From: Kofleriaceae bacterium
Lineage (GTDB): Bacteria > Myxococcota_A > Polyangia > Haliangiales > Haliangiaceae
Direction of reading: 5' to 3'
DNA: 64,000 nt
Assembly (NCBI GenBank): GCA_018058095.1
Contig: JAGPCO010000005.1
Span: 62,001 to 126,000, forward strand
Both the position numbers and the translations under genes were made by a program. The notes beneath the pieces were generated by a model, which saw nothing but the letters and a program-made list of their open reading frames with translations, did no database searches and had not been told where the DNA came from. Shown piece by piece: positions 7,785 through 56,588 of the stretch (the stretch's first letter is position 1; each line of letters opens with the position of its first letter).

Positions 7785-7791
7785 CGGCCGC

Positions 7792-7797: not shown

Positions 7798-7904
7798 ACA
7801 TCATCGCGCCATTCGCTCGGTACCGCCGGGCGTCTCGTCGGCCGGGTCGTGGATGGCGCCGGGTGCGCTTGACCCGCCGTCGCGCCTGGCTTGCACTCGG
7901 GGGC

Positions 7905-14258: not shown

Positions 14259-14696
14259 CTTCTTGCTGGCGATCTCGATCTTGCGCGGCTTGGCGTTGAC
14301 CTTCTTGCCGACGTTGACGGTCAGGACGCCGTCGTCGAGCTTGGCCTCGACCTTGTCGCCGTCGGCGGAGTCCGGCATGGAGAAGCTGCGCGAGAACGCG
14401 CCGTACTGGCGCTCGTACACGTAGTAGCTCTCGCCTTCCTTGCGCTCCTCCGAGCTGCGCGAGCCGTTGATCGACAGCACGCCGTTGTGGAACGACACGT
14501 CGAGGTCGGCCTGCTTGACCCCCGGCAGGTCGGCCCGCAGGACGAAGGCGTCGGCCGTCTCCTTGACCTCGAAGCTGGGGCTGAAGGCCGAGGCCTGGCG
14601 GGTCAGGGGGTCCCAGGCGAACAGCTCGCGCGCGAGCGCAAATGGATCGCGGCTGTAGAAGGCGGGGGTGGCGTCACGACGGGTGATGAGCGACAT
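14256..14696 (-). CDS. Small heat shock protein (Hsp20 / alpha-crystallin)
   Basis: 146 residues, the usual length. The alpha-crystallin domain spans ~40-140: [20 protein letters not shown], the L9 motif DDGVLTVNV, and the short C-terminal tail RKIEIASKK, which holds an IEI form of the I-X-I motif that docks neighbouring subunits. Hsp20 proteins are ATP-independent cytoplasmic holdases that form oligomers and keep unfolding proteins soluble. A strong Shine-Dalgarno AGGAGA lies 6 nt before the ATG, so this gene has a real leader, unlike many neighbours. The 211 bp upstream should hold its promoter; no clear sigma-32 box is seen. Confidence 0.95.
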
Positions 14697-14907
14697 GGTG
14701 GTTCTCCTGATGATCTGGTTGGCGGCCGAGTGGCGTGGCCGCGGGGTGATGACCTCTCTGTAAGTCGCCGCGCGCGCGCCGCAACGGCTTGACGAACGCC
14801 CTCGCCGTGCACACCAGGGACCGATCGCCCTCGCGCCGGGCCTGCACGATCGGGCAGGCGCCTGCCAGCCCGGCCAGGGGCCTGGTCCGGACGCCCGCCT
14901 CCCAGGC

Positions 14908-15813
14908 TCAGCGCGCGACCAGGCGGGCGAAGCAGCGTGGCGAATCGTCGGGCTGGCCGACCGGGCGCAGCACCCCGGCCGCGCCGACGTCGTCGCCCCA
15001 GCGGAACAGGCGCAGGTGCACCGCGACCTGGTCGCCGGCGAAACACGGCTTGCGAAAGGCGATGTCGAGGCTGCGGGTCAACACCGCGCGCGAGAGGCCG
15101 TGTGCGGCCAGCCGGCGCTGCGTGGCCTCGATGAACAGGCGGGGGTAGACGAGCGAGTTGACGTGCTGGTTGGAGTCGGTCTGGTCGAGGCCGAAGCAGG
15201 TGACGACCGGGTCGGCCACGTCGGCGTCGTCGAGCCAGGTCGCGCCGGCCGGCAGCTCGCCGGCGCTGGTCGCCGACGGGCCCGGGTAGCGGGCGGCCGG
15301 CACCGCCGGCAGGTCGGGGTGGCCGACCGCGGCGAACGAGGTGACGGAGCGCTGGCCAGGGGGCGCGAACAGCCGGGTGAAGACGTGCTCGGCGAACAGG
15401 TGCCCGGCCACCACCGGTTCGCCCGGACCCTCGCGCGGGAACAGGCGACCGGCCCGCCCGGACAGCGACAGCCACATGTTGAGGTACAGCCGATCGACCT
15501 GGCCGCTCACCTCGCGCGCCGCCAGCTCGAACCGCCCCGCGCCGGTCGCGGGCTGGTCGAGCCGGACCCGGGCCTCGGTGCCGGTCACCGTGAGCCGGGT
15601 CAGGATCGGCACGATGCCGTGCTTGCTCAGGGCCCGCTCGCCGTCGCGCCGGGCCAGCACCGGCCGCCACAACGTCCACGCCAGCGCGGCCGGCAACGCC
15701 ACCACCCGCAGGCGGCCGTCCTGGGCCACGTCCTCGTAGCGCAGCTCGCCGGTGCCCTCGCCGTGTTGATCCGCAGGCACCTCGGGTGGCACGGGCATCA
15801 CGAAGTCGGGCAT
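14908..15813 (-). CDS. Hot-dog-fold protein, probably acyl thioesterase-like
   Basis: 301 residues. The C-terminal half carries [21 protein letters not shown], which matches the Asn-His-Val-Asn helix region of acyl-ACP/acyl-CoA thioesterases (D-x-N-x-H-V-N). The N-terminal half ([32 protein letters not shown]) may be a second, degenerate hot-dog. Thioesterases of this type hydrolyse acyl thioesters or act as dehydratase-like folds; substrate unknown. ATG at 15813 is preferred to an upstream start because of a TACGCT box 8 nt before it and because the longer N-terminus looks non-coding. It is divergent from the phosphoesterase gene 93 bp away. Confidence 0.6.
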
Positions 15814-15893
15814 ACCCGCCGAGCGTACTGCAAAACGACCCTGGCCCTGCGGCCGGGCGGGCCCGGCGCTGGTCGGCACGAGGCGGCGCGCGC

Positions 15894-15899
15894 TACCGT
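15894..15899 (+). promoter_or_regulatory. -10-like box (TACCGT) of the phosphoesterase gene
   Basis: TACCGT ends exactly 6 nt before the ATG at 15906. A TACGCT on the opposite strand (15822-15827) serves the divergent gene. Confidence 0.4.
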
Positions 15900-15905
15900 C
15901 GGCGC

Positions 15906-16538
15906 ATGGTCCGCGTCGTCGCCATGGCCGACACCCACGGCCACCACGCCACGATCGACGTGCCCGACGGCGATGTGCTGGTCCACGCCGGCGACCTCAC
16001 CGCCCGTGGCACGCTGCCGCAGCTGCGCGCGGTCGCCGACTGGCTGGCCGCCCTGCCGCACCGGCACAAGGTGGTCATCGCCGGCAACCACGACTTCGCG
16101 CTGCAGCGGCAGCCCGGCCCGGCCCGCGCCCTGTTCACCGACGCCGGGCTGACCTATCTCGAGGACGAGGAGGTCACGCTGGATGGCCTGCGCGTGTACG
16201 GCAGCCCGTGGCAGCCGTGGTTCCACGACTGGGCCTTCAACCGGCGGCGTGGCCCCGACATCGACACCTGCTGGCGCCGTATCCCGACCGGGCTCGACCT
16301 GCTGGTCACCCACGGCCCCCCGGCGGGGTTCGGCGATCGCTGCTACGACGGTCGCCGCGTCGGCTGCGCCGACCTGCTGGCCCGGATCGTCGAGCGTCGG
16401 CCGCGCTTCCACCTGTTCGGCCACATCCACGAGGACGGCGGCCGCTGGGACGACGGCGTGACCACCTTCGTCAACGTCACCACCGCCGATGACACCCGGC
16501 CGTGTACGGTGCTCGACGTCTCGCCGGCGCCGGGCTGA
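15906..16538 (+). CDS. Calcineurin-like metallophosphoesterase
   Basis: 210 residues, a compact single domain. All five metal and catalytic motifs are visible: ADTHG (D-x-H), HAGDLT (GD), AGNHDF (GNHD), VTHGPP (H) and FGHIHEDGG (GHxH). The close match to the short metallophosphoesterases of the MPPED1/2 type suggests a soluble phosphodiesterase on small nucleotides or phosphoesters; the true substrate is unknown. The extra WQPWFHDWAFNRRRG segment before the fourth motif is typical of that subgroup. It ends 5 bp from the convergent MBL-fold gene. Confidence 0.88.
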   Translation: MVRVVAMADTHGHHATIDVPDGDVLVHAGDLTARGTLPQLRAVADWLAALPHRHKVVIAGNHDFALQRQPGPARALFTDAGLTYLEDEEVTLDGLRVYGSPWQPWFHDWAFNRRRGPDIDTCWRRIPTGLDLLVTHGPPAGFGDRCYDGRRVGCADLLARIVERRPRFHLFGHIHEDGGRWDDGVTTFVNVTTADDTRPCTVLDVSPAPG

Positions 16539-16543
16539 CGGCG

Positions 16544-18154
16544 CTAGTGTTCGTGCCCGTGCCCGTGCCCGTGCCCGTGCTCGTGCCCGTGCCCGTGCTC
16601 GTGTCCACCGGCGCAGGTCCCGCACACGTGCTCGTGGGTCGAGGTCGGGCCGAGCACGAAGCGGCGGCCGTGCTGGAGGTGGACCAGGCTGGCGCCGACC
16701 CCATGCGCGGCCCGGGCCATGCCGTGGAACGCGCCGAGCGAGTGCGAGCCGATGTGGCTCTGGAGCAGGTACGAGCCGGCCAGCCGGTACCACGGCAGGT
16801 TGCCGTGGGCGTACGGGTACAGCATCGACAGACCGGCCTCACGCACCAGCCGGCCCAGCACGCTGACCGGCGTCCCGGTCTCGGGAGCGTCGTCGAACAG
16901 CGCGATCGGCGGCAGGTACCAGGTGTACAGGCGGCCGAAGGTGAGCGGCTCGTGGTGGGCGTCGCGGTAGCCGGCGGCGCGGGTGTGGGTGGCGAGGCGG
17001 TTGGTCATCAGGCCGAGCGGACGGGTGTCGCCCCGGCGGCGTGTCGCCAGCCACTCGACCTGGGCGTCGGTCACCGCGGAGTCGGCGCACAGCGCCCACA
17101 CCTGGTCGGGTAGCTCGAGCAGGTAGCAGTTCCAGGTGTGGTCGAGGCTGGGCGGGAACTCGCCGATGAAGGGGAAGGCCGTGATCCGGAGCTCGCCGAT
17201 CGCCACGGACTCGCCGTGGCGCAGCACGCGGACGTCGCGCTCGGCGCCGAGGAGGGTGCGCAGCGCCACCACCAGGTCGACCTGCCACGGCTTGCGCGCG
17301 TCGGCGGCCGGGACGTAGATCGGCACCGTCGGCGGGATCAGGCCGAGCGCGCCGAGGTCCATGTGGTCGAGGTCCTGGTGGGTGATGAAGACCGCGTCGG
17401 GCAGCGGCAGCTCATCCTGGGTGACGTGGTGCGCGCCGGGGCCGTAGTCGGGCAGCAGGTACTGATCGGGCACGTCGGCGCCGAACAGGCTGGTGCGCTC
17501 GGCCTCGGTCCAGGCCATGCGCGGGGTCGGGAACGGGTCGAACCACACGTTCTTGCCGGCGCAGGCGGCCCGGACGTAGGCGTGCCCGAGCCACATCAGC
17601 GTCGGTTCGGTCTCGACCGCGGGCACCGGGCTCGGGCCCGGCACGACCTCGAGCACGCCGCGCGCCAGCAGGTCGTCGACCACCTCGTCGTCGATGCCCA
17701 GCTCGAGCTGATCGGCCAGCGCCAGCACGTCGGCCCGTCGGGCGCCGCGGTGCAAGGCGCGCAGCACGTCGAGCACGCGCGGGGTGTCGGCCTCCGACGG
17801 CAGGTACGCCATGTTGGAGTCCTGGCGGATGCGGCCATCACGCAGCAAGATGCCGAGGTCGCCCAGCCGCAGCTCGAGCGCCGAGTCGAGCTCGGGCAGC
17901 GGCTCGACCTTCACCGCGTGGGTGGTGGGGTCCTCCTTCCACAGCGTGAGGTACCGCCCGAGCGGGACGTCGGTCCGGAACGACCGGGCCTCCTCGATCT
18001 GGCCGGCCGCGACCAGCGAGCGGACGATGCCGACGACGTGGTGGGCGTAGCGGACCCGGGCCGGGTCGGCCGTCAGCGTCTGCGGGGTCATCGGGTGGAC
18101 GCCCTGGCGCAGCTGCGGGAACACGTGGGGGGACAGGCGGATCCAGGGTGACAT
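16544..18154 (-). CDS. MBL-fold metallo-hydrolase with His-rich C-terminal tail
   Basis: 536 residues. Residues ~30-190 are a helical domain with winged-helix-like stretches (RADVLALADQLELGIDDEVVDDLLARGVLEV). From ~200 is a metallo-beta-lactamase fold with the signature THQDLDHMD (first metal His replaced by Gln context compared with HxHxDH), then CADSAVT and the later THTRAAGYRDAHHEP. The last ~20 residues alternate His with Gly or Glu and are encoded by a CGTGCC-type hexamer array. Such a tail could bind Zn or Ni. The reaction is unknown. It follows the giant kinase gene on the same strand after 61 bp. Confidence 0.75.
   Translation of the reverse strand: MSPWIRLSPHVFPQLRQGVHPMTPQTLTADPARVRYAHHVVGIVRSLVAAGQIEEARSFRTDVPLGRYLTLWKEDPTTHAVKVEPLPELDSALELRLGDLGILLRDGRIRQDSNMAYLPSEADTPRVLDVLRALHRGARRADVLALADQLELGIDDEVVDDLLARGVLEVVPGPSPVPAVETEPTLMWLGHAYVRAACAGKNVWFDPFPTPRMAWTEAERTSLFGADVPDQYLLPDYGPGAHHVTQDELPLPDAVFITHQDLDHMDLGALGLIPPTVPIYVPAADARKPWQVDLVVALRTLLGAERDVRVLRHGESVAIGELRITAFPFIGEFPPSLDHTWNCYLLELPDQVWALCADSAVTDAQVEWLATRRRGDTRPLGLMTNRLATHTRAAGYRDAHHEPLTFGRLYTWYLPPIALFDDAPETGTPVSVLGRLVREAGLSMLYPYAHGNLPWYRLAGSYLLQSHIGSHSLGAFHGMARAAHGVGASLVHLQHGRRFVLGPTSTHEHVCGTCAGGHEHGHGHEHGHGHGHGHEH
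16552..16604. repeat. CGTGCC hexamer array inside the MBL gene end
   Basis: About eight imperfect hexamers (CGTGCC with CGTGCT variants). On the coding (reverse) strand they read GGCACG and give the His-Gly/His-Glu tail. The same hexamer occurs in intergenic arrays at 31651 and 45541. Confidence 0.8.
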
Positions 18155-18215: not shown

Positions 18216-21200
18216 TCATGGCGGGGCCGCCCGGGTCGTGGGTGAGGGTGCGGTCACCCCCTGGCACGCCCGAGGATCGATCGGCCGCGGCACCCGCACG
18301 CCGGCCTCGAGCGTGAACGGGACCCGACACGCGGCCTCGCGCTCGAGCGTGGCGACGTCGGCGCGGTCGCGCGCGAGCGTGACGAAGGTGACCGCGCCGC
18401 TGAGCCCCCCCACCGCGACCTGGCCGTCGGCCGCGGTCACCAGGCGGGCCTCCGACGGCAGCGGCACACGCAGCAGCACCGCGGCGCTGGTGCGGTCGAC
18501 CACGGTCAGCACGCGGTTCATGCCGCCGACCAGCAGCAGGTCGTCGTCAGCGAACGACAGGTTGATGACGTCGGCGCCGTACAGCCCGACCAGGCCGAGC
18601 TTGCGGCCGGTCGCCAGGTCGAACTCGGTGACCGAGCCATCGTCCATCCCGGCGAAGACGTGCCCGGCCCGGACCGCGACCATCCACGGGTAGGCCTCGC
18701 CGGCGTAGCGCCCGAGCTCGCGGCCATCGGTCAGCGCTCGCCGGCCGATCGTGTAGTCCTGCCCGACCACGAACAGGCTGCCGCTGGCGAGGTCGCTCAG
18801 GAGCGCGCGCAGGACCCCGCCTGGAGGATCGATCGAGAAGCGCAGCGCGCCGGTGCGTGTGTCCCATACCCGAGCGCCGCCGTCCGTGCCGTACACCACC
18901 GCCGAGCCATCCCCGAGCCAGAACCGGATCAGCTCGTTGCCGATCGCGGGCAGCTCGCCGGGCAGCGAGAGGTGGGGGCCGCCGACGAGCGACACGATCT
19001 GGGCCGGCCCCGCCGGCGCCACCGCCAGCAGGCGGGCGCCGTCAGGCGCGAGCTCGATGGTCGCCCCGGCGCCGAGCGCCGGCAGGTCGAGGCGCCGCGG
19101 CGCCGCCGCGCGCGGATCGGGTGCGGACACGTCGACCTCGTGCAGGACGCCGTCGGCCGCGGCCAGCAGCCACCGCCCCCCCCGGCACGCGGCGTCGGAC
19201 ACGACCAGCTCGGCCGGGCTGGTCCACACCACCTCCCCGCTGCGGCTCCAGCCGATGGCCTTGCCGTCGGCGCCGACGGTGAGCCAGCTGGGGCCACCGG
19301 TACACGCGGCCACGCGGGTGACGATGCCGGCGTGTGCGGTCGGCCGGTACTGGGTGGTCGAGCGCGAGGTCCAGCGCCGGATCGTGCCGTCGCCGCCGGC
19401 GCTGACCACCTCGTCGCGCCCGGGCACGGTGAAGGCGCGGAACACCGCCGCGCCCTGGGCGGCGAAGCGGGCCAGCGGCAGGGCGGCGTCGACGTCCCAC
19501 AGGATGGCCGAGTCGCCGATGGTCGTGAGCACGCGGGTGTCGTCGGCGCCCCACCGCACCGAGTACACCAGACCGCGGTCGGGGCTGAGCGTCGCCTTGC
19601 TGCTGCCGTCGCGGTTCCACACCCGGATCGTCCCGTCGCGGGCGCCGGTGGCGAGCAGCTTGCCGCTCGGGCTCCACACCACGTCGTCGATCGCCGCGCT
19701 GTGGCCGACCATGGTGGCGCGGGCGGCGCCGGTGCGCGCGTCCCACAGCTTCGCGGTCCGGTCCCAGCCAGCGGTCGCCAGCAGCGCACCATCGGCGGAG
19801 AACGCGACCGCCCAGGTCGTGTCGGCGTGGGCGTGGGGGATGAACGTGCGGACGGCGCCGGTGTCCGGATCGATCAGGCGCAGGCTGCCATCGAAGCCGG
19901 GCACGGCCATGGTCCGGCCGTCGGGCGACAGCGCGGGCAGGCCGACCGATCCGCCGGGGATGGCGTGCTGGCCCACCTTGCGCCCGGCCGGCAGGTCCCA
20001 CACGCTGATCGTGCCGGCGTCGTCGGCCAGGTACACGCGCCGGCCGTCCGGACCGAACATCACCACGAACAGCCGGCTGTCGCCGTGGACGAGGGTGTGG
20101 ACCAGCTCGCCGGTGGCGACCCGGTACAGCCGAGCTCGTCCGTCGAAGGACGGCGCCGCCAGGAGCGCGCCGTCAGGTGAGGCGGACAGGTTGAAGATGC
20201 CATCGCGCGCGTCGCGCAGCACGTGCAACGGCGCGGCCTGGTCGACGCTCCACAGGTTGACCACGCCATCGGAGCCGGCCGAGGCGAAGCGGGTGCCGTC
20301 GCCGAGCGGCACCATGGCCCAGATCTTCTTGTCGTGGCCGCGCTGGACCAGGCGCTCGGCCGCGAACACCTGCCGGGCGGTGGCCAGCGGCACCTCGAGC
20401 GCGGCGCCGCTGGCGCCACCGGCTCGGGCCGCGGTCAGGTACACCAGCGCCGCGCTGGCGTCGCCGGCGACGGCGGCGCGCTGGCCGAGGCTGAGGTTGC
20501 TGGCGGTGACCGCGTCCTTGGCCTGGCCCTCGCCGGCGACCGCCCGCCGCTCGTTGCTGGCCGCCCGCACCCGCTGGGTCTCGGCGTCGCGGTACAGCAC
20601 CAGCGCGACCACCAGACCGACGGTGAGGATGGCGAGGATGGTGCCGATGGCGCCGTTGCGGAGGCGGCGGCCGCGCGCCGCGTCGCGCTCGCTCGCATCG
20701 CCGAACTGCTGCTCGACCGCGGTCAGGAGGCCCGGGTGGCGGGCCCGCCACAGCTGGTACTCGGTCAAGGTCTCGGCGCGCCACAGCAGGCCGCGCGGCC
20801 GGCCGCGCTCCTCCCACTGCCGGGCCGCCGCGCGCAGCTGGTCGCGCAGGCGGGCGCCCTCGGCGTCCTCGCGTCGCCAGTCGATCAGCCGGGGCCAGCC
20901 CGACAGCAGCGCCTCGTGGACGACCTCGACCCGGTCGATGCCACCGACGCCCTCCGACCCGGTCAGCAGGCGCGCGCCGATCAGCTTCTCGATGACCGAC
21001 TCGCCGGTGCGGGCGTCGCCGAGCAGCTCGAGCATCTCGGCCCGGGTCAGCACCGCGCGGGTGCCGTCGGCGGTGACCAGGTTGCGGAAGCCGACCCGGA
21101 CCAGCTGCCGCTCGTCGGCGCTCATCTGCCCGAACACCCGCTCGGCGTGCTGGGCCAGCGCGCCGCCGACGCCGCCCAGCGTCTCGTACGCCTTGCGGGT

Positions 21201-23777
21201 CAGGCGGTGGGCGTGCCGATCGCGCAGGTCCCACATCTGCGCCGCGGTGAACGACAGGAGCGGCAGGGCGGCGGCCTGGTCGGCCACCGCGCTCACCATC
21301 TCGGCCGGCAGCTCCGGGTCCTCGAACTCGTAGCCGGCGCGGCGGGCCGGCTCGGTCAGGATGCGGCCGAGATCCTCGGCGGTCGGGGTCGCCAGCAGCT
21401 GCAGGCCGGTGGCCAGGCGCTCGCGCAGCGGGCCGACCTGCTGGCAGCGCAGCAGGAAGTCGTCGCGCACGGTCAGCACGACGCGGATGGGGTCGTCGAC
21501 CAGGCGGCTGATGCCGACCAGGGTGTCGACGTAGCGGGCGCGGTCACCCGGGTCGTGGCACAGGGTGAAGACCTCCTCGAACTGATCGACGTAGAGGAGG
21601 ACCTGGTGCTGCTGGGCCTGGGCCCAGCCCCGCAGCGCGGCGCGCACGCCGTCGCCGTCGAGTTCGCCCGCGCCGATGCCGACGCCGGCGCCGACCAGGC
21701 CGGCTCGCAGCGCGGTCAACGGCGACGGGCCGGGGCGGACGATGATCGTCGTCCAGCTCGGGCCGAGCGCCGGGACCACGCCGGCCTGCACGAACGAGCT
21801 CTTGCCGGCGCCCGACGGGCCGACCACGACCAGCAGCGGCGTCACCCGCAGGCGATTGGCGAAGGCCTCGGTCTCCTGCTCGCGGCCGACGAACTGATCG
21901 GCGTCGTCGCGAGTGAACGTGGCCAGGCCGCGATACGGCGGGCGCTGCTCGGCCGCCTGGGCCCGCTCGTCGGCGTCGAGCCCGACCCGGGCCCGCATCC
22001 ACGGCCACAGGGCGTCGTCGGTGCGCTCGAACCCGGTCGGCAGCGACACCAGGCGCGCGCCGCCCTTGCCGGCGCCATCGAGCACGAACATCTCCTCGCC
22101 GTGGCCCGGGGCCGGGCGGGCCAGCTGGACCAGGGGTGACAGCGGCACGACCACCGCGCCGTTCTGGTCGATGAGCACCAGCGCGTCGCGGCCGCCGGCG
22201 TCGGCCAGCGCGCCCCGCACCGGCACGGTGGCGCGGTGCAGCCGGCGCACCCCCATCCACGGCTCGCCGACGTCGGCCCGCCCGTCGGCCGCGCGCACCA
22301 CCACCAGCGGGTACGAGCCCAGCCAGGTCAGCCGGCGCAGCAGCTTGTCGACCAGCGGCAGGGCCTTGCCCAGCTGGGCCAGCGTGGTCGCCTCGTCGGC
22401 GGTGGGGTGCTGTTCGAACCAGCCGCGCAGCGTCAGCAACCCGGCCAGCTCGTCGGTCGCGCTCGTCGTCGCGCCGTCGCCCGGCGCCAGCAGCTCGATC
22501 AGCTCGGGCAGCGCGAAGCCGTCGCCCAGGGCCGAGACGCGACCGGCGATGCGCTGCGCCAGCTCGATCCACTCGGGGTCGGACAGGCCGCGCTGACGGA
22601 GCTGGCGCAGGCGGACCTGCAGGTCGTCCTGATCGCCGCCGACGCGGGCCGCGACCTCACACCAGCAGGCCAGGGCCAGGTTGCCGATCAGGCGGACGAC
22701 GACGCGGACCACCGCGAACACCGCGCCCTGGGCCTGGTGCACGTTGCGCACGCTGTCGAACGCGGCCACCGCCTCGGCCAGCGGCTGCGGCGCGCTGGTC
22801 AGCAGCTCGTCGCGCAGGAACGGGTCGAGCTCGGGCAGCCGGGGCGCGGCGCCGTCGAGGCCGGCCGCGGCCCGCATCGCCGCCGCCAGCTCGAGCGCGC
22901 TCGGGAAGCGATCGTCGGGACGCTTGGCCATGGCCCGGGCGATCACCGCGTGCAGCGCCGCCGGCAGGTGGGCCGGCAAGGCGGGCACCGGCGCGCGCGC
23001 GTGCAGGCGGGCGATGCCGGGCGTGGTCGGGGCCGAGAACGGCAGGCGCCCGGTCAGGACCTCGAAGGCGAGGATGCCGAGCGCGTACACGTCGGTCCGG
23101 GCGTCGGCCCGGCTGGCGTCGACCCACTGCTCGGGCGCCATGTACGCCGGCGAGCCGAGGTACTTGCCGGCCCGGGTGTAGCGGGCGCCGCTGCCCTGCG
23201 CCAGCGCGGGCTCGTCGGTGGCCTCGTCGTCACCGGGGCTGGTCCCGGCGTCGCTGGCGCGGCCATCGCCGCCGTCGCCCTTGGCGATGCCGAGGTCGAG
23301 CAGCTTGGGCAGGAGACGACCGGCCCGGGCCAGCACCATCACGTTCGACGGCTTGAGGTCGCGGTGGATGATGCCCTGCTCGTGCGCGGTCTGCACCACC
23401 TCGCAGATCTTGTCGAACAGCGGCGCGAAGCGCTCGAGCGGCAGCGGCCCCTGCTGCTCGACGACGCGGTCGAGCGGGGTGCCGCGCACCAGCTCCATCG
23501 CCGTCCACAACGTGCCGTCGGGCTCGGACCCGAACGCGTAGATGTGCGCGGCGTACGGGTGGTCGAGCTTGGACGCCAGCCGGGCCTCGCGCAGGAAGCG
23601 GGCGACGTACTCGGCCGAGCTGGCCGACGGCGCCAGCGGCACCTTGATCACCGCCTCGCGCCCGAGCAGCGGCTGCTCGGCCCGGTACACCGCGCCGAAC
23701 CCGCCGGCCCCGATCTGGTCGCGCACGACGAAGTCGCCGAGCGTCCGCCCGATCAGTGCTTCACCCTCGGAGCCCAC
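18216..23777 (-). CDS. Ser/Thr protein kinase fused to STAND ATPase, membrane helix and WD40 propellers
   Basis: 1853 residues. ~10-290: protein kinase with glycine loop GAGGFGAVYRA, VIK lysine, HRDLKPSN catalytic loop, DLG in place of DFG, APEQ and DVYALG. ~590-900: STAND-type NTPase beginning YRGLATFTRDDADQFVGREQE, Walker A GPSGAGKSS, Walker B LLYVDQFEEV. A membrane helix near residue 1090 (IGTILAILTVGLVVALVLY) is followed by a helical stretch and at least ten WD40-like strands (GHSAAIDDVVWSPSGKLLATGARDG) to the end. It is probably a signalling hub with the WD40 part on the far side of the membrane from the kinase. GTG at 23777 is chosen: GACAAT lies 8 nt upstream and the upstream extension looks non-coding. 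Confidence 0.85.
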   Translation of the reverse strand: MGSEGEALIGRTLGDFVVRDQIGAGGFGAVYRAEQPLLGREAVIKVPLAPSASSAEYVARFLREARLASKLDHPYAAHIYAFGSEPDGTLWTAMELVRGTPLDRVVEQQGPLPLERFAPLFDKICEVVQTAHEQGIIHRDLKPSNVMVLARAGRLLPKLLDLGIAKGDGGDGRASDAGTSPGDDEATDEPALAQGSGARYTRAGKYLGSPAYMAPEQWVDASRADARTDVYALGILAFEVLTGRLPFSAPTTPGIARLHARAPVPALPAHLPAALHAVIARAMAKRPDDRFPSALELAAAMRAAAGLDGAAPRLPELDPFLRDELLTSAPQPLAEAVAAFDSVRNVHQAQGAVFAVVRVVVRLIGNLALACWCEVAARVGGDQDDLQVRLRQLRQRGLSDPEWIELAQRIAGRVSALGDGFALPELIELLAPGDGATTSATDELAGLLTLRGWFEQHPTADEATTLAQLGKALPLVDKLLRRLTWLGSYPLVVVRAADGRADVGEPWMGVRRLHRATVPVRGALADAGGRDALVLIDQNGAVVVPLSPLVQLARPAPGHGEEMFVLDGAGKGGARLVSLPTGFERTDDALWPWMRARVGLDADERAQAAEQRPPYRGLATFTRDDADQFVGREQETEAFANRLRVTPLLVVVGPSGAGKSSFVQAGVVPALGPSWTTIIVRPGPSPLTALRAGLVGAGVGIGAGELDGDGVRAALRGWAQAQQHQVLLYVDQFEEVFTLCHDPGDRARYVDTLVGISRLVDDPIRVVLTVRDDFLLRCQQVGPLRERLATGLQLLATPTAEDLGRILTEPARRAGYEFEDPELPAEMVSAVADQAAALPLLSFTAAQMWDLRDRHAHRLTRKAYETLGGVGGALAQHAERVFGQMSADERQLVRVGFRNLVTADGTRAVLTRAEMLELLGDARTGESVIEKLIGARLLTGSEGVGGIDRVEVVHEALLSGWPRLIDWRREDAEGARLRDQLRAAARQWEERGRPRGLLWRAETLTEYQLWRARHPGLLTAVEQQFGDASERDAARGRRLRNGAIGTILAILTVGLVVALVLYRDAETQRVRAASNERRAVAGEGQAKDAVTASNLSLGQRAAVAGDASAALVYLTAARAGGASGAALEVPLATARQVFAAERLVQRGHDKKIWAMVPLGDGTRFASAGSDGVVNLWSVDQAAPLHVLRDARDGIFNLSASPDGALLAAPSFDGRARLYRVATGELVHTLVHGDSRLFVVMFGPDGRRVYLADDAGTISVWDLPAGRKVGQHAIPGGSVGLPALSPDGRTMAVPGFDGSLRLIDPDTGAVRTFIPHAHADTTWAVAFSADGALLATAGWDRTAKLWDARTGAARATMVGHSAAIDDVVWSPSGKLLATGARDGTIRVWNRDGSSKATLSPDRGLVYSVRWGADDTRVLTTIGDSAILWDVDAALPLARFAAQGAAVFRAFTVPGRDEVVSAGGDGTIRRWTSRSTTQYRPTAHAGIVTRVAACTGGPSWLTVGADGKAIGWSRSGEVVWTSPAELVVSDAACRGGRWLLAAADGVLHEVDVSAPDPRAAAPRRLDLPALGAGATIELAPDGARLLAVAPAGPAQIVSLVGGPHLSLPGELPAIGNELIRFWLGDGSAVVYGTDGGARVWDTRTGALRFSIDPPGGVLRALLSDLASGSLFVVGQDYTIGRRALTDGRELGRYAGEAYPWMVAVRAGHVFAGMDDGSVTEFDLATGRKLGLVGLYGADVINLSFADDDLLLVGGMNRVLTVVDRTSAAVLLRVPLPSEARLVTAADGQVAVGGLSGAVTFVTLARDRADVATLEREAACRVPFTLEAGVRVPRPIDPRACQGVTAPSPTTRAAPP

Positions 23778-23935
23778 CGCGCTCGATTGTCGATCCTCGC
23801 GCGCGGCGAGGGAACGGCGAAGCGCCACGATCGCGTGCCCGGCGCCCGGCGAGGGACCGGCGAAGGGCCCCGATCGCGCCGACGGCGGCGCCAGGCTGGG
23901 CGGCCGGTGCAAGGTGCACAACTCGAGATCGCCGC

Positions 23936-23955
23936 TTGCGCGACCCGTGCACGCC
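23936..23955 (+). promoter_or_regulatory. Candidate activator box upstream of the first mini-protein gene
   Basis: TTGCGCG-N4-GTGCACGCC, identical outside the 4-nt spacer to a box at 25381. TGCRC and GTGCA form a loose dyad. It lies 49 bp before the -24 element of 24004. Confidence 0.5.
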
Positions 23956-24003
23956 GCCACGACGGCGCTCCAAGCAATGCCCTGGAATCACGTCCGACGA
24001 GGC

Positions 24004-24019
24004 TGGCGCGCCACGTGCA
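24004..24019 (+). promoter_or_regulatory. Sigma-54-like -24/-12 element of the first mini-protein gene
   Basis: TGGCGCG-CCAC-GTGCA fits the sigma-54 consensus TGGCACG-N4-TTGCW with two mismatches. The GC of the -12 box lies 14 nt before the start GTG. Confidence 0.5.
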
Positions 24020-24032: not shown

Positions 24033-24221
24033 GTGAAGAAGACGAAGCCACCTCGCAAGCTGACGCCCCGGGCCCTGTCCGCCGAAGGCCTGGTCGGAGC
24101 CGATGGTGGCGGCTACATCCGCTACGGCGACATGATCTGCACCTGCGGATCCGTGGTCTACGGCGACGGGTGGTGCCCCAACTGCCAGGCATACGGCATG
24201 GAGGAGATCAGCTGGTACTGA
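24033..24221 (+). CDS. Cys-containing mini-protein, family member 1
   Basis: 62 residues from GTG. Basic, Pro-rich N-terminus (KKTKPPRKLTPRALSAEGL), then GGGYIRYGDMICTCG and CPNC, ending in EISWY. The block PRALSxExL...IR[FY]GDMxC is shared with the proteins at 25489 and 28232, which fixes the start. The CxC/CxxC spacing suggests a small zinc-ribbon or a modified peptide; nothing shows which. A sigma-54-like element precedes it. Its 3' end overlaps the convergent PLP-decarboxylase gene by 14 bp. Not recognised as a known family. Confidence 0.65.
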   Translation: MKKTKPPRKLTPRALSAEGLVGADGGGYIRYGDMICTCGSVVYGDGWCPNCQAYGMEEISWY

Positions 24222-25341
24222 TCCCGCGCTCGGTCCGGAACACCACGGCCGCGGGGGCCACCCCGGAGAAGCCCTGGTTCCACGCCGCCGCGTAGCCGCT
24301 GACCGCGCCGACCACGATCGGCGCCCCCACCGGGTAGTCACGCCCGTCGGCCACGAAGTCGCCCAGCACGTCGTCCTCGAAGCAGGTCGGCCCGACGATG
24401 GTCAGGTGGTCGCGTCGGCCCGGAGCCGGCGCCGTCCCGGCCAGGGCGACCGGGGACCAGCGCAGGTGCGCCGCTCGCGACAGGGTGCTGACCAGCACCG
24501 TGCGATCGCGCCGAGGGCACACGGCGGCGACCTGGCCGACGGCCCAGCCGGCGCCGAGGGTCCACAGCCGGCCCGGCTCGATGCGCAGCTCGACCTCCGG
24601 CAGCGCTACCCGCACCGCCGCCAGCGCCGGGCCGAGCTGCTCGGCCACGCCGTGCCATCCGCCGCCGAGATCGACGAAGGCGGGCCGCCACCCCAGCTGG
24701 TCGACCGCGTGGGCCACCGCCGCCGCCAGCGCTCCCCACGCCGCGGGCGAGGTCAGCACGGTACCGGCGCCGTGGACGTGGAGGCCGACCCGTCGCCCCG
24801 CCGCGGTGGCGGCGCGGACCAGCACCAGCGCGCGGGCCTGGCCATCGGCGTCGTCGAGCTCGAGGCCGAAGCGCGAGCGGCGGTGGCCGTCACCGGCCTG
24901 CAGGGCGCCGATGGCAGGGTGGCCTGGCGCCAGGGCCGACACCGACACCCGCACCGCGACCTCGACCTGGCCAGGCCACGCCAGCACCCGCGCCAGCGCG
25001 GCCTCGGTCTCGACCGACACGACCGTGGTGGCACCGGCGCGTGCGGCGTCGCCGGCCGGGCTGGCGCACGACACCAGCCCGGGCGCGAGCCCGGATGCGA
25101 GCGCGTGTTCCCCGGGACCGGCCAGGTCGAGCCCGTCGAGCTCGGCGCAGGCCAGCTCGACCATCGGCCGCGCGGGCAGCGACTTCACCGCAAACAGCAC
25201 CCGCACGCCGAGCGGCCGCGCCGCCGCCATCACCGCCCGCATGCGGTCGCGCATGGGATCCAGGTCGTACACCAGCACCGGCGTCCCGGCCGTGGCCACG
25301 TCCCCCACGAGCGGCGGCAGCCACGGCGGGATGGGCAGCAT
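24208..25341 (-). CDS. Fold-III PLP-dependent decarboxylase (ornithine/diaminopimelate decarboxylase-like)
   Basis: 377 residues. The TIM-barrel holds the PLP lysine in VLFAVKSLP, HVHGAGT, the phosphate-binding DLGGGWHG and EPGR. The C-terminal beta domain has GPTCFEDDVL (catalytic Cys region) and GAVSGYAAAWNQGFSG. These are the marks of group IV decarboxylases acting on ornithine, lysine, diaminopimelate or carboxynorspermidine; substrate is not decided. It is monocistronic, with TAGCGT 6 nt before the ATG. It is flanked by two related mini-protein genes: one overlaps its 3' end, the other diverges from its 5' end. That may be chance or may mark a joint function. Confidence 0.85.
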   Translation of the reverse strand: MLPIPPWLPPLVGDVATAGTPVLVYDLDPMRDRMRAVMAAARPLGVRVLFAVKSLPARPMVELACAELDGLDLAGPGEHALASGLAPGLVSCASPAGDAARAGATTVVSVETEAALARVLAWPGQVEVAVRVSVSALAPGHPAIGALQAGDGHRRSRFGLELDDADGQARALVLVRAATAAGRRVGLHVHGAGTVLTSPAAWGALAAAVAHAVDQLGWRPAFVDLGGGWHGVAEQLGPALAAVRVALPEVELRIEPGRLWTLGAGWAVGQVAAVCPRRDRTVLVSTLSRAAHLRWSPVALAGTAPAPGRRDHLTIVGPTCFEDDVLGDFVADGRDYPVGAPIVVGAVSGYAAAWNQGFSGVAPAAVVFRTERGISTS

Positions 25342-25347
25342 GGGGGC

Positions 25348-25353
25348 ACGCTA
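25348..25353 (-). promoter_or_regulatory. -10-like box (TAGCGT) of the decarboxylase gene
   Basis: TAGCGT on the reverse strand, exactly 6 nt before the ATG at 25341. Confidence 0.4.
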
Positions 25354-25380
25354 GCAGGCGGTCAGCTTGTGCAGGCTCTG

Positions 25381-25400
25381 TTGCGCGCGAAGTGCACGCC
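25381..25400 (+). promoter_or_regulatory. Candidate activator box upstream of the second mini-protein gene
   Basis: TTGCGCG-N4-GTGCACGCC, the same as at 23936 except in the spacer. It lies 59 bp before the -24 element at 25459, one helical turn more than at the first gene. Confidence 0.5.
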
Positions 25401-25458
25401 CATACACCAGCTGGCTCCGGCCCGTCCCGTAACCCCTTGCCTTCAGGTCGATCGATGG

Positions 25459-25474
25459 TGGAACACGGTTTGCT
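25459..25474 (+). promoter_or_regulatory. Sigma-54-like -24/-12 element of the second mini-protein gene
   Basis: TGGAACA-CGGT-TTGCT: both the GG and GC pairs and the TTGCT box are perfect. The GC lies 15 nt before the ATG at 25489. Confidence 0.6.
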
Positions 25475-25488
25475 CTGACGTTGGGTCG

Positions 25489-25755
25489 ATGAAGAAGCCC
25501 GCCCCTCGCCGCATCGCGCCCCGGCCGCTGTCCAGCGAGTCGCTCGAGGGCTTGTCGGGCGGGGCCGGCAAGATCATCCGCTTCGGTTCGGGAGCCTGCG
25601 ACGTGTGTGGCTACCTGACCGACGACCCCGAGATGGTCGACTGCCCGAAATGCAACCCGCCCGCCTCGGCCGGTGGTGGAGGTGGTGGCGGCTTCGGTGG
25701 TGGCTTCGCAGGCAACTTCGGCTTCGGTGGCCTCAGCGACGACCTGGTGATCTGA
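25489..25755 (+). CDS. Cys-containing mini-protein with Gly-rich tail, family member 2
   Basis: 88 residues. KKPAPRRIAPRPLSSESLEG, then GGAGKIIRFG, then CDVCG...VDCPKC (two CxxC pairs 16-18 residues apart, a zinc-ribbon-like arrangement). A tail of about 30 residues follows, rich in Gly and Phe (GGGFGGGFAGNFGFGG) and ending LSDDLVI. The N-terminal block matches the proteins at 24033 and 28232. The Gly/Phe tail resembles structural or phase-separating segments. No function is known to me. It ends 21 bp from the convergent PepSY gene. Confidence 0.7.
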   Translation: MKKPAPRRIAPRPLSSESLEGLSGGAGKIIRFGSGACDVCGYLTDDPEMVDCPKCNPPASAGGGGGGGFGGGFAGNFGFGGLSDDLVI

Positions 25756-25756
25756 G

Positions 25757-25775
25757 CCGGCCCGACGGGTCGGCC
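25757..25775. terminator. Imperfect hairpin between convergent genes
   Basis: GGCCCGAC-GG-GTCGGCC with a one-base bulge, between the stops of the mini-protein and PepSY genes. There is no T-run, as expected in such GC-rich DNA. Confidence 0.35.
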
Positions 25776-25776
25776 A

Positions 25777-26466
25777 TCAGGGCGCTGGCGCAGGCACCGA
25801 CGGTCGCTCGTCGCCAGGTGACCTCGGCGCCTCGGTCGCCGTCGTGGCCGCAGCGCGGTGCGCCTCCGGTCCGCCCGACCACACGACGTAGGCGACGGGG
25901 ATGGCGATGCCGGCCCCGGCCAGCAGCGCGCCGCGCCAGCGCAGGCCGAGCCGGCCCTTGATCATGAACAGGCCGGAGATGGCCAGGTACAGCAACATCA
26001 CCGCGTACACGTCGGCGACGTAGGTCCAGGCCCGCTTGCCGCGGTTGTAGTGCAGCCAGTTGGCGACGCGCAGGAAGAAGCGCGACGACCGTCCCTGGTC
26101 GACCACCAGGCCGGTGTCGCCGTAGATGACCAGCTTGCGGCTGTCGTACTCGAGGTGCAGCTCGTCCCCGGCGCGGTAGGTCGAGCGCGGCGGGCCGAGG
26201 TCCAGCGCGGCCCGCGCCGCGGCCACGGCCTCGTCGTCCGACAGCGTGGCCGGGATGGGAGCGATGGTGCGCTCGTGCTGGTAGCTGGTGAAGTTGGGAT
26301 CCCAGTCGGCCAGGTGGTTGATGGCCAGGCCGCTCACCGCGTAGATCACGGTGAAGCCGACGGCGAGGTAGCCGAGGTCGCGGTGCACGGCGCGCAGCCA
26401 GGCCCGCCAGCGCTTCTTGATCGTGACCAGCAGGCTGGCGCCTGGCTCGGCGGCCGGCTCAGCCAT
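25777..26466 (-). CDS. PepSY-type membrane partner of the molybdoenzyme
   Basis: 229 residues with three or four helices. RDLGYLAVGFTVIYAVSGLAINH is the first helix of PepSY_TM proteins. A ~100-residue periplasmic loop carries the PepSY fold (ELHLEYDSRKLVIYGDTGLVVDQG). YVADVYAVMLLYLAISGLFMI and LAGAGIAIPVAYVVW follow, then a Pro/Ala-rich tail. The His residues in helices 1 and 3 could bind haem, as in the membrane subunits of ferric-reductase-like systems. The start ATG lies inside the last codons of the molybdoenzyme gene (8-bp overlap), so the pair is translationally coupled and probably forms one complex. Confidence 0.8.
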   Translation of the reverse strand: MAEPAAEPGASLLVTIKKRWRAWLRAVHRDLGYLAVGFTVIYAVSGLAINHLADWDPNFTSYQHERTIAPIPATLSDDEAVAAARAALDLGPPRSTYRAGDELHLEYDSRKLVIYGDTGLVVDQGRSSRFFLRVANWLHYNRGKRAWTYVADVYAVMLLYLAISGLFMIKGRLGLRWRGALLAGAGIAIPVAYVVWSGGPEAHRAAATTATEAPRSPGDERPSVPAPAP

Positions 26467-27190
26467 ACCGCTCCTCCCGCCACGGATCGGCGTGGTTGTG
26501 GTAGCCGCGCACCTCCCAGTAGCCGGGCTCGTCGGCGGCGACGAATCGCACGCCGGTGATCCACTTCGCGCTCTTCCAGAAGTACAGGTCGGGCACCAGG
26601 CCGCGCACCGGCGCGCCGTGCTGGAGCGCGAACGGGCGACCGTTGAGGCGGTAGGTGATCATCGCCTCGGGTCGGGTCGCCTCCGCCAGCGGCACGTTGG
26701 CCGTGTAACCATGGGCCGCCTCGAAGATGACGTGGCGGGCCTCGGCCTTCATCCCGGCCTTCTCGGCCAGGGTGGTCATGAGGACGCCCTTCCACAGGCC
26801 GGCCAGCATGCTCCAGCCGGTCACGCAGTGGACGTCGGCCTCGCGCTCGTGCTGTGGCAGCTTGAGCAGCGCGGCGTAGTCGAGCTCGAGCGGCTGGCGG
26901 ACCAGGCCATGGACACGCAGCCGGAAGCTCTTGACGTCGCCCGGGCCCTCGTCACCACCCATCGGCCTCAGCTTCTCGATGACCCGCTGCCCCGGCGGCA
27001 GGCGCGGCCGCCCGTCGGCCCGCTTGTCGGCCCGCGCCTTGCGAGTCATGTCGTCGCTGGCGAGCCGGTACACGGCGCCCCCCACCGCAAGCAGCGCCGT
27101 GCCAGCCACGGCCGAGGTGACGAAGCGGCGCCGGTCGAGCGCGCTGCGCAGCGCCGGGTAACGATCGAGGTCGGGGTCTTGGCGGTTCAC
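26459..27190 (-). CDS. YedY/sulfite-oxidase-family molybdopterin oxidoreductase
   Basis: 243 residues. A twin-Arg-like N-terminus (RRRFVTSAVAGTALLAVGG) suggests Tat export of the folded cofactor enzyme. The Mo-ligating Cys is in DVHCVTGWSML, matching the CVxGWS motif of MsrP/YedY; HGAPVRGLVPDLYFWKSAKWI is the conserved end of the domain. Known relatives repair methionine sulfoxide in the periplasm or oxidise sulfite; here the electron partner is probably the PepSY membrane protein. GTG at 27190 is chosen for the strong GGAGG 6 nt upstream, and the twin-Arg motif follows it at a normal distance. An upstream reading would translate the 12-bp repeats. Confidence 0.88.
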   Translation of the reverse strand: MNRQDPDLDRYPALRSALDRRRFVTSAVAGTALLAVGGAVYRLASDDMTRKARADKRADGRPRLPPGQRVIEKLRPMGGDEGPGDVKSFRLRVHGLVRQPLELDYAALLKLPQHEREADVHCVTGWSMLAGLWKGVLMTTLAEKAGMKAEARHVIFEAAHGYTANVPLAEATRPEAMITYRLNGRPFALQHGAPVRGLVPDLYFWKSAKWITGVRFVAADEPGYWEVRGYHNHADPWREERYG

Positions 27191-27250
27191 GGAGCCTCCA
27201 GCACAGCTACGGGCAGGTGGCGGGGTTGGATCGGCCCTCGGCGGTGGCGC

Positions 27251-27286
27251 GTCACGGCCAAGGTCACGGCCGAGGTCACGGCCAAG
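27251..27286. repeat. 12-bp tandem repeat, 3 units
   Basis: Three units GTCACGGCCAAG/GTCACGGCCGAG lie 60-100 bp upstream of the molybdoenzyme start. They could be regulator sites or simple slippage. Confidence 0.7.
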
Positions 27287-27361
27287 GTAGTAGAGCACAT
27301 GCGGCCTGAGTGCCTACGTCGCACCCCGGGGTGGTTACCGGCGGGCCTCCACCCGTCGTGG

Positions 27362-28054
27362 TCAGGCCCGGCCGTAGACCGGGACCAGCGTGCCGGTGGT
27401 CAAGGCGTTGTCGGCCGAGGCCAGGAACGCGATGGTCGCCGCCAGCTCGCTCGCCTTGGGCCAGGCGTCGTGGTCGGCCGCGGGCATGGCGGCGCGGTTG
27501 GCCGGGGTGTCGATGATCGACGGCACCACGGCGTTGACCAGGATCCGCTCGGCCAGCACCTCGGCGGCCAGGCACTGGGTGATCGACGCCACCGCCGCCT
27601 TGGCCGCGCTGTACGCGATCATGCCGCCGACCGGGCTCAGCACCGGTCGGGCCGCGACGTTGACGATCCGGCCGCCGCCGCCGCCGCCGCCGCGCATGGC
27701 CCGCACCGCCTCCCGGCTGCACAGGAAGCAGGTGGCCGCGTTGAGGGACCACTGCTTGCCGAGGTCGGCCAGCGAGGTGTCGGTGATGGGCGCCATCGCG
27801 AAGCCGCCGACGAGGTGGATCGACGCCCACGGCGCAGGCAGGTCGGCGTAGTACCGGGTCACCGCGGCCTCGTCGTCGAGCGCCAGCCCGGGCCGCGCCA
27901 CCACCGCCGGCGAGGTCGCCCATGGCAGGTGCGCCGGCAGCGCCGCCTCCACCATCGGCACGTGGACGGTGGCGCCGCGGGCGAGCAGCGCGGTGACGAC
28001 GGAGGCACCCAGGCCACCGGTCGCGCCGGTGACCACCACGTGTTGTCCTTGCAT
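27362..28054 (-). CDS. Short-chain dehydrogenase/reductase (SDR)
   Basis: 230 residues. The NAD(P) motif is TGATGGLG; the catalytic Tyr and Lys are in YSAAKAA; the Asn position is in SLNAATCF and the Ser lies in the NVAARP..PVGGM strand. The short loop RAMRGGGGGGGRIVN is a poly-Gly insertion from a GCC repeat. Classical SDRs reduce or oxidise alcohols, sugars or acyl groups; the substrate is not decided. It is monocistronic, with TAGAGT 6 nt before the ATG. Confidence 0.88.
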   Translation of the reverse strand: MQGQHVVVTGATGGLGASVVTALLARGATVHVPMVEAALPAHLPWATSPAVVARPGLALDDEAAVTRYYADLPAPWASIHLVGGFAMAPITDTSLADLGKQWSLNAATCFLCSREAVRAMRGGGGGGGRIVNVAARPVLSPVGGMIAYSAAKAAVASITQCLAAEVLAERILVNAVVPSIIDTPANRAAMPAADHDAWPKASELAATIAFLASADNALTTGTLVPVYGRA

Positions 28055-28060
28055 CGGCGC

Positions 28061-28066
28061 ACTCTA
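28061..28066 (-). promoter_or_regulatory. -10-like box (TAGAGT) of the SDR gene
   Basis: TAGAGT on the reverse strand, exactly 6 nt before the ATG at 28054. Confidence 0.45.
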
Positions 28067-28126
28067 GCCTGCCCGGGCCCGCTGGCCGCCTCCGGCCGGG
28101 GCGATGTGCACCTCGCCGGGTCCACG

Positions 28127-28146
28127 CTGCGCACCGAGTGCAACGT
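28127..28146 (+). promoter_or_regulatory. Candidate activator box upstream of the third mini-protein gene (weaker match)
   Basis: CTGCGCA-N4-GTGCAACG resembles the 23936 and 25381 boxes and lies 58 bp before the -24 element. CGTGCACG follows it immediately. Confidence 0.35.
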
Positions 28147-28203
28147 GCACGGGTTGGCCGAAGCCGCCGTCGGCCAAGCCCTCGACGGCACAGGGCGCCG
28201 TCC

Positions 28204-28219
28204 GGGCGTGAGACTTGCT
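28204..28219 (+). promoter_or_regulatory. Sigma-54-like -24/-12 element of the third mini-protein gene
   Basis: GGGCGTG-AGAC-TTGCT: the GGC and TTGCT blocks sit at the right spacing. The GC lies 13 nt before the ATG at 28232. Confidence 0.5.
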
Positions 28220-28231
28220 TACTCCCCGAGG

Positions 28232-28414
28232 ATGCGCAAGCGCACCCCGCTCCGGCCACGTGCCCTCGACGTCGAGGCGCTGGACACCATGGCCGGTGCG
28301 GCGAGCAAGTTCATCCGCTTCGGCGACATGGTGTGCCGCAACTGCGGAACTCGCCAGGCCCTGGCGCCGGCCTGCGCAAGCTGCGGCTGGGTGCCTGGGC
28401 AGGCCTTCCAGTAG
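28232..28414 (+). CDS. Cys-containing mini-protein, family member 3
   Basis: 60 residues: RKRTPLRPRALDVEALDTM, AGAASKFIRFGDM, then CRNCG...ACASCG (two CxxC pairs ~12 residues apart) and a short WVPGQAFQ end. The PRALxxExL and FIRFGDMxC blocks match 24033 and 25489. A four-Cys pattern this tight is common in zinc ribbons. A GAGG sits right at the ATG. Function unknown. It converges with the VWA lipoprotein gene 54 bp away. Confidence 0.68.
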   Translation: MRKRTPLRPRALDVEALDTMAGAASKFIRFGDMVCRNCGTRQALAPACASCGWVPGQAFQ

Positions 28415-56382: not shown

Positions 56383-56398
56383 TGGCCTTCGCCGTGCA
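56383..56398 (+). promoter_or_regulatory. Sigma-54-like -24/-12 element of the fourth mini-protein gene
   Basis: TGGCCTT-CGCC-GTGCA, with the same GTGCA -12 form as at 24004. The GC lies 14 nt before the ATG at 56412. No TTGCGCG/GTGCA upstream box is obvious. Confidence 0.45.
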
Positions 56399-56411: not shown

Positions 56412-56588
56412 ATGAAGAAGCCCATGCCCATCGGTCAGGCCCTGCGCGCCGTGTCGTCCACCAACTTGGCCCGCGTCGGCGGTGGTGAGGATCGCCCGCC
56501 GGCCCCGCCGCCGCCGCCGCCGTCGTCGCCGTCGCCGTCGCCCTACCTCAAGTACGAGCTCAAGAACGTGCTCATCTCGGGCTACTGA
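56412..56588 (+). CDS. Pro-rich mini-protein ending in an Hcp-like strand
   Basis: 58 residues. MKKPMPIGQALRAVSSTNLARVGGG is followed by a Pro/Ser run of ~20 residues and the end YLKYELKNVLISGY. That end matches the Y-L-K-x-x-L-x-N-V-x-I-S-S-Y strand near the C-terminus of type VI secretion Hcp proteins, whereas the rest of Hcp is absent. It could be a fragment or an unrelated small protein. It has no Cys, so it does not belong to the CxxC family by sequence, but it shares their MKK start and promoter arrangement. Its end overlaps the convergent membrane-protein gene by 7 bp. Confidence 0.5.
   Translation: MKKPMPIGQALRAVSSTNLARVGGGEDRPPAPPPPPPSSPSPSPYLKYELKNVLISGY

What the first reader, a model, noticed from the sequence alone, without database searches (positions are those of the whole stretch)
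24033..28414. A three-member family of short Cys peptides, possibly RiPP precursors or zinc ribbons
The proteins at 24033, 25489 and 28232 (62, 88, 60 residues) share a basic N-terminus, a PR-A/P-L-S/D-x-E-x/S-L block and an IR-F/Y-G(DM)-C block, then Cys pairs. The C-termini differ: plain, Gly/Phe-rich, and short. Conserved leader with variable tail is what RiPP precursors show; CxxC pairs are what zinc ribbons show. Either is consistent. I know no named family with this pattern. A fold-III PLP decarboxylase sits between two of them.
Basis: partly seen in the sequence, partly recalled or inferred. Interest (0 to 1): 0.7.

Follow-up and report, generated by a model that had tools for sequence, protein, structure and literature searches.

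The report
Scattered double-glycine secreted peptide family
Three small cysteine proteins in this myxobacterial-type genome belong to a nine-gene family that looks like precursors of secreted peptides: each has a cut-and-export leader, a shared sigma-54-type promoter and a metal-binding-like core, and together they suggest a scattered peptide arsenal found so far in only one species.

Summary
The genome holds nine members: three in the window and six singletons on other contigs. None was found in 15 congeners or about 400 other genomes of the phylum, or with one motif pattern in 84,980 species.

All nine carry a classic double-glycine leader, L(-12)-x4-L/I(-7)-x4-G(-2)-G/A/S(-1). Only 1 of 1,224 background ORFs matches. 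In all nine, the best sigma-54 (-24/-12) site in the 200 nt upstream lies 12-14 nt before the start codon. Six further peptides share leader type and promoter but have unrelated cores (Trp/Gly-rich, lanthipeptide-like, Pro-rich); one is in the window at 56412.

The genome encodes two C39-peptidase ABC exporters with intact catalytic residues. Each lies beside an FHA sigma-54 activator, and neither lies beside a member. No maturation enzyme was seen beside any Cys-family copy.

All nine keep four Cys/His ligands in two pairs; in two members His replaces one Cys. That favours metal binding over thioether chemistry.

Best reading: precursors of small secreted peptides, exported in trans by C39 transporters under sigma-54-type control, with a zinc-knuckle-like core. 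The biological role is inferred, not shown.

The parts
24033..24221 (+). Cys-peptide precursor 1 (62 aa, GTG start); leader MKKTKPPRKLTPRALSAEGLVGADGG, core GYIRYGDMICTCGSVVYGDGWCPNCQAYGMEEISWY
24004..24019 (+). sigma-54-type -24/-12 site TGGCGCGCCACGTGCA, 13 nt before the start codon
   Evidence: best-scoring site in 200 nt upstream
25489..25755 (+). Cys-peptide precursor 2 (88 aa); leader ending LSSESLEGLSGG, core with CDVC/CPKC pairs and a Gly/Phe-rich tail
25459..25474 (+). sigma-54-type -24/-12 site TGGAACACGGTTTGCT, 14 nt before the start codon
   Evidence: best-scoring site in 200 nt upstream
28232..28414 (+). Cys-peptide precursor 3 (60 aa); leader ending LDVEALDTMAGA, core with CRNC/CASC pairs
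28204..28219 (+). weak sigma-54-type site GGGCGTGAGACTTGCT, 12 nt before the start codon
   Evidence: score 8.2, the lowest of nine but still the best in 200 nt
56412..56588 (+). further double-glycine-leader peptide with a different, Pro-rich core (58 aa): MKKPMPIGQALRAVSSTNLARVGGGEDRPPAPPPPPPSSPSPSPYLKYELKNVLISGY
56383..56398 (+). sigma-54-type site TGGCCTTCGCCGTGCA, 13 nt before that peptide's start codon

Best explanation
The three proteins, with six dispersed paralogues, are precursors of small secreted peptides. The first ~23-26 residues are a double-glycine leader. A C39-peptidase ABC exporter (with HlyD-type adaptor and TolC-type channel) encoded elsewhere in the genome recognises it, cuts after G-G/A/S and exports the core in trans. 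Each gene is transcribed on its own from a sigma-54-type -24/-12 promoter placed so close that the start codon falls 12-14 nt after the -12 box, leaving an almost absent 5' leader. The same promoter arrangement serves other double-glycine peptides and many lipoproteins. The released core (~35-63 residues) begins near [AG]Y[IV]R[FY]G and holds two Cys/His pairs that most likely clamp one metal ion as a mini zinc knuckle; two disulfides are the alternative in the seven members with four Cys. The likely use is outside the cell, as a bacteriocin-like or prey-directed peptide set or as secreted metal-binding peptides. Shown by sequence: family, leader motif, promoter motif, exporters, ligand conservation, core diversity. 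Inferred: cleavage, export, sigma-54 dependence, metal binding, biological role.
For: Leader: 9 of 9 members match L.{4}[LI].{4}G[GAS] ending at residue 23-26, against 1 of 1,224 background ORFs of 50-100 aa. The 12-residue block has no indel, while the stretch before it and the core vary in length. Promoter: the best sigma-54 site in 200 nt lies 12-14 nt before the start in 9 of 9 (Mann-Whitney p 6.5e-7 against 97 other genes). The pattern occurs 60 times in the genome against 9 for the reversed pattern and 20 at a shifted spacing; in 1.22 Mb the gap distribution peaks at 12-13 nt. Core swap: C85 (two copies), C94, C112, C204 and window 56412 pair a double-glycine leader with the same promoter but have other cores. 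Exporters: five C39 hits; C27 and C92 keep the catalytic C/H/D and lie beside FHA sigma-54 activators. Ligands: seven members have four Cys; the other two have three Cys plus one core His in the missing-ligand position. Structure model, low confidence: a helix only in the leader (14-23) and short strands around the first Cys pair. Parallels: class II microcin GG/GA leaders and C39/MFP/TolC export (PMC9746304); sigma-54 as controller of the bacterial exterior (PMC3162934).
Against: No exporter, immunity or maturation gene was seen adjacent to any copy. The nine leaders and promoters are homologous, so the nine matches are not nine independent tests. The sigma-54 matrix was set by hand from the published consensus after the motif had been noticed. 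The promoter class mostly precedes lipoproteins, so it is not specific to peptides. w28232 and C181 have weak -24 boxes. No transcript, protein or activity data exist. The core stays conserved for ~14 residues past the cut, more than in most hypervariable bacteriocin or RiPP families.
Confidence: 0.7

Rival explanations
1. Post-translationally modified RiPP precursors, modified at Cys or aromatic residues by an enzyme acting in trans (for example the genome's lone MNIO enzyme or a radical-SAM protein) and then exported.
For: The leader resembles lanthipeptide-type leaders present in the same genome (C112 vs NF038153 E 5.3e-4, below its cut-off). A single MNIO gene sits on C13 (PF05114 E 3e-90). 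A radical-SAM gene on C34 carries the same promoter spacing. Core Cys and Tyr residues are conserved.
Against: None of the nine copies was seen to neighbour a maturase. The four-ligand pattern with Cys-to-His swaps does not fit thioether or thiooxazole chemistry.
Confidence: 0.15
2. Cytoplasmic zinc-ribbon micro-proteins of unknown role (nucleic-acid or protein binding); the Gly-Gly motif is coincidental.
For: CxxC-CPxC pairs; sub-threshold Pfam zinc-ribbon and rubredoxin-like hits (Zn_ribbon_3 21.7 bits against 27; RUBY_RBDX 16.8 against 26.5); basic N-terminus.
Against: The leader motif is at 1 in 1,224 in the background and is shared, with the promoter, by peptides lacking Cys. The regulon is dominated by exported proteins. 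The loop between the Cys pairs is hypervariable.
Confidence: 0.12
3. Secreted disulfide-bonded class II bacteriocins (microcin-like) with no metal. This is a variant of the best explanation and overlaps with it.
For: Double-glycine leader, C39/HlyD/TolC systems in the genome, even Cys number in seven of nine, Gly-rich tail in one.
Against: Two members have three Cys plus a His in the ligand position; no recognisable immunity partner gene; nine dispersed single genes.
Confidence: 0.25

Closest known systems
Class II microcins (e.g. microcin V/CvaB system)
   Same: Double-glycine leader (GG or GA), C39 ABC transporter + membrane fusion protein + TolC in the same genome, small core (PMC9746304)
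   Different: Nine dispersed paralogues without adjacent exporter or recognisable immunity gene; four-ligand Cys/His core; sigma-54-type promoter; no family-model match
Class I lanthipeptide-type leaders (NF038153 lant_leader_L1a)
   Same: Short basic MKK start and L..L..GG leader; two other peptides of this genome (C112, C204) lean on this model, and a congener peptide passes it (28 bits vs 22)
   Different: The Cys family does not match the model; no LanB/LanC neighbour was seen; cores lack a clear Ser/Thr-Cys pattern
Zinc-ribbon / rubredoxin-knuckle families (PF13248, PF21349)
   Same: Two CxxC-like pairs, CPxC second knuckle
   Different: Below curated cut-offs; C/H swaps and hypervariable loop; N-terminal export leader
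Sigma-54 exterior/lipoprotein regulons (PMC3162934, PMC12316311)
   Same: -24/-12 promoter upstream of exported proteins
   Different: Start codon fixed 12-13 nt from the -12 box; small double-glycine peptides among the targets

Membership tests
Double-glycine (C39) leader peptides | L(-12), L/I(-7), G(-2), G/A/S(-1) leader in a short N-terminal segment | tested here: met
   9 of 9 members; background 1 of 1,224
Double-glycine (C39) leader peptides | C39 ABC exporter with intact catalytic residues in the genome | tested here: met
   C27 and C92 exporters keep C, H, D (read from sequence); C152 lacks the Cys
Double-glycine (C39) leader peptides | Leader cleaved after GG on export | not testable with these tools
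   needs in vitro cleavage or mass spectrometry
RiPPs | Linked maturation enzyme (YcaO, radical SAM, Lan, MNIO) | tested here: not met
   genes read beside all nine copies are unrelated; the lone MNIO lies on C13
RiPPs | Post-translational modification | not testable with these tools
   needs mass spectrometry
Class I lanthipeptides (NF038153) | Leader model match | tested here: not met
   none of the nine members hit NF038153 at E up to 10
Class II microcins | Adjacent immunity protein gene | tested here: inconclusive
   no partner gene noticed beside the copies, but immunity proteins are hard to recognise
Class II microcins | Antibacterial activity | not testable with these tools
   needs an assay
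Zinc-ribbon families in Pfam | Score above the curated cut-off | tested here: not met
   best 21.7 bits against 27
Zinc-ribbon-like metal binding | Four Cys/His ligands in two pairs | tested here: met
   9 of 9, two with a Cys-to-His swap
Sigma-54 regulon | -24/-12 promoter at a consistent place | tested here: met
   best site in 200 nt lies 12-14 nt before the start in 9 of 9
Sigma-54 regulon | RpoN/activator-dependent transcription | not testable with these tools
   needs 5'-end mapping and an RpoN test

The most novel reading that the evidence does not exclude
A myxobacterial-type lineage runs a scattered, sigma-54-controlled, nearly leaderless regulon of orphan double-glycine peptides with interchangeable cores, exported in trans by shared C39 machines. 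One core class is a new secreted metal-knuckle peptide family used against other cells.
Probability: 0.35. Interest if true: 0.75.

Novelty: new variant of a known kind. Interest (0 to 1): 0.58.

Why it matters
Bacteriocin and RiPP mining usually looks for clusters. Here the precursors are lone genes spread over the genome and tied together only by leader and promoter, so cluster-based tools would likely miss them. The promoter-plus-leader rule found six further peptides, one of them inside this window, and can be applied to other genomes. The fixed 12-13 nt between the -12 box and the start codon across dozens of exported-protein genes is a directly testable claim about near-leaderless sigma-54 transcripts. 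The Cys/His core would be an unusual secreted metal-binding peptide.

Tried and rejected
Pfam, NCBIfam and PHROGs gave no family above cut-off (PHROGs for the window peptides only, no convincing hit). PDB sequence profile: only chance-level zinc-finger hits. Plasmid tblastn with the C67 member: none. Congener and phylum profile searches found no member; congener decarboxylase orthologues are only ~45% identical, so a fast-evolving peptide could be missed. At the decarboxylase locus several congeners have the neighbours but no peptide. AlphaFold model: pLDDT 60, too weak for a fold search. The MNIO gene has no sigma-54-type site scoring above 6 near its start and no member beside it. An 'AA' element ~28 nt upstream of the -24 box is in most Cys-family members but not in the other peptides or the lipoprotein genes, so it was not read as a regulon box.
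Full report
Observation. The three ORFs at 24033-24221, 25489-25755 and 28232-28414 are present, start with basic residues and share PR.L..E.L....G, IR[FY]G and two Cys pairs. A single-sequence search of the window's own genome (G000, 7.57 Mb, 227 contigs; window = C27:62001-126000) already found relatives on other contigs. A profile found nine members: the three here and C67:43578-43766(-), C188:4579-4806(-), C181:11623-11832(+), C69:48439-48621(-), C49:13784-13972(-) and C150:4003-4194(+). Pairwise identity is 27-53%, and the three window copies are not each other's closest relatives, so this is not a recent tandem array.

Distribution. No convincing member was found in 55 relatives, including 15 of the same genus, or in 379 genomes across the phylum (only the best 15 first-look candidates per genome were scored). 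A motif pattern over 84,980 named species gave only unrelated matches; that pattern covers only some members. At the decarboxylase/PepSY locus, several congeners keep the neighbours without the peptide. Congener orthologues of that decarboxylase are only about 45% identical, so absence of a fast-evolving peptide is weak evidence of novelty.

Leader. Every member has L(-12), L or I(-7), G(-2) and G/A/S(-1). The 12-residue block is free of indels, while the region before it and the core vary in length. The rule L.{4}[LI].{4}G[GAS] ending at residue 20-32 fits 9 of 9 members and 1 of 1,224 mechanical ORFs of 50-100 aa. This is the layout of double-glycine leaders cut by C39 peptidase exporters (general knowledge; GG or GA for class II microcins in PMC9746304). 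The nine are homologous, so they count as one lineage, not nine independent matches.

Promoter. Upstream of all nine is a TGGCNC-N5-YTGCW-like site. With a matrix set by hand from the published sigma-54 consensus (TGGCACN5-7TTGCT, PMC12316311), the best site in the 200 nt upstream is at a gap of 12-14 nt from the start codon in all nine. The weakest are w28232 (8.2) and C181 (8.5). The pattern with an 11-14 nt gap occurs 60 times in the genome, against 9 for the reversed pattern and 20 with a 15-18 nt gap. In 1.22 Mb of this genome, the distance from such sites to an ATG peaks sharply at 12 and 13 nt (26 and 18 cases; every other gap 10 or fewer). The genes downstream are mainly lipoproteins and other exported proteins, in line with sigma-54 as controller of the bacterial exterior (PMC3162934). 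A related pattern is found in 15 of 16 genomes of the genus, with one control match in all. By the usual -24/-12 geometry the transcript would start within a few nucleotides of the start codon; this is inference.

Core swap. The same leader type and promoter spacing occur with unrelated cores: two tandem peptides on C85 and one on C94 sharing WYWTGS[TS]WA[YF]GDP; lanthipeptide-type leaders on C204 and C112; and a Pro-rich peptide inside the window at 56412-56588. In the window, five ORFs have such a site at a gap of 11-14 nt; four of them are double-glycine peptides. This is the strongest argument that the N-terminal part is a leader and not part of a zinc protein.

Exporters. Five C39 hits exist. 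Those on C27 (about 12.07-14.40 kb, roughly 72 kb from the window trio) and C92 keep the catalytic Cys, His and Asp; the C152 copy lacks the Cys (read from sequence). Both intact exporters sit with HlyD-type adaptors, TolC-type channels and FHA sigma-54 activators. The C27 cluster also encodes two larger proteins with double-glycine leaders. No exporter is adjacent to a Cys-family gene, so export would be in trans. That link is inferred.

Core chemistry. The core starts near [AG]Y[IV]R[FY]G and has two short Cys/His pairs separated by a loop of very variable length. Seven members have exactly four Cys. C181 and C49 have three Cys and one core His placed as the fourth ligand (CGH and HSC). Such swaps are typical of metal sites (general knowledge) and argue against thioether chemistry. 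No Pfam zinc-ribbon model reaches its cut-off, and the fold prediction is of low confidence.

Maturation. HMM scans of neighbours show ordinary genes: ClpA-like AAA, ABC/MacB, FAD oxidase, AMP-binding, SDR, CoA-transferase, SIR2/TPR, STAND-WD40 kinase, PLP decarboxylase, PepSY, molybdopterin oxidoreductase; the wider ORF lists were read by eye. No RiPP maturase was seen. One MNIO gene exists on C13, away from all members and without this promoter.

Verdict. The most likely reading is a dispersed family of double-glycine precursors for small secreted Cys/His-knuckle peptides, under sigma-54-type control. What they do outside the cell is not shown.

Noticed in passing
window 56412-56588 (+): A fourth double-glycine-leader peptide with a Pro-rich core and the same sigma-54-type site 13 nt before its start.
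   Followed up: partly
G000 genome-wide: A sigma-54-type regulon of exported proteins and lipoproteins whose start codon is fixed 12-13 nt after the -12 box, suggesting nearly leaderless transcripts; also seen in congeners.
   Followed up: partly
L077 (G000:C27:4001-24000), 5563-16676: C39 ABC exporter, two HlyD-type proteins, TolC-type protein, FHA sigma-54 activator and two larger proteins with double-glycine leaders (14511, 15501).
   Followed up: partly
L132 390-650 and 1008-1259 (-); L295 16117 (+): A second peptide family with a WYWTGS[TS]WA[YF]GDP core and Gly-rich tail; two copies in tandem.
   Followed up: partly
L203 9126-9356 (-); L204 about 9710-9920 (-); L169 1501 (+): Lanthipeptide-type leader peptides; no Lan enzymes seen beside the two in this genome, and those two have the same promoter spacing.
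   Followed up: partly
L149 1423 (-) and L150 1423 (+): Two peptides whose GG leader is followed by only 8 residues (LSNPHPTG, FFSNQTGE), pheromone-like, without a good sigma-54-type site.
   Followed up: no
L208 7677-9457 (-): A lone MNIO-type enzyme (NCBIfam best hit bufferin maturase, below cut-off) followed by what reads as a DUF2063-like partner, with no obvious precursor beside it.
   Followed up: partly
L131 1481-2572 (-): A radical-SAM protein whose ATG is 12 nt after a sigma-54-type site; a possible trans maturase, or chance.
   Followed up: no
window 18216-23960 (-): Kinase-STAND-WD40 fusion protein (1914 aa) divergent from the 24033 peptide gene.
   Followed up: no
upstream of the Cys-family members, ~28 nt before the -24 box: An 'AA' doublet in most of the nine members, absent from the other peptides and the lipoprotein genes.
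   Followed up: partly
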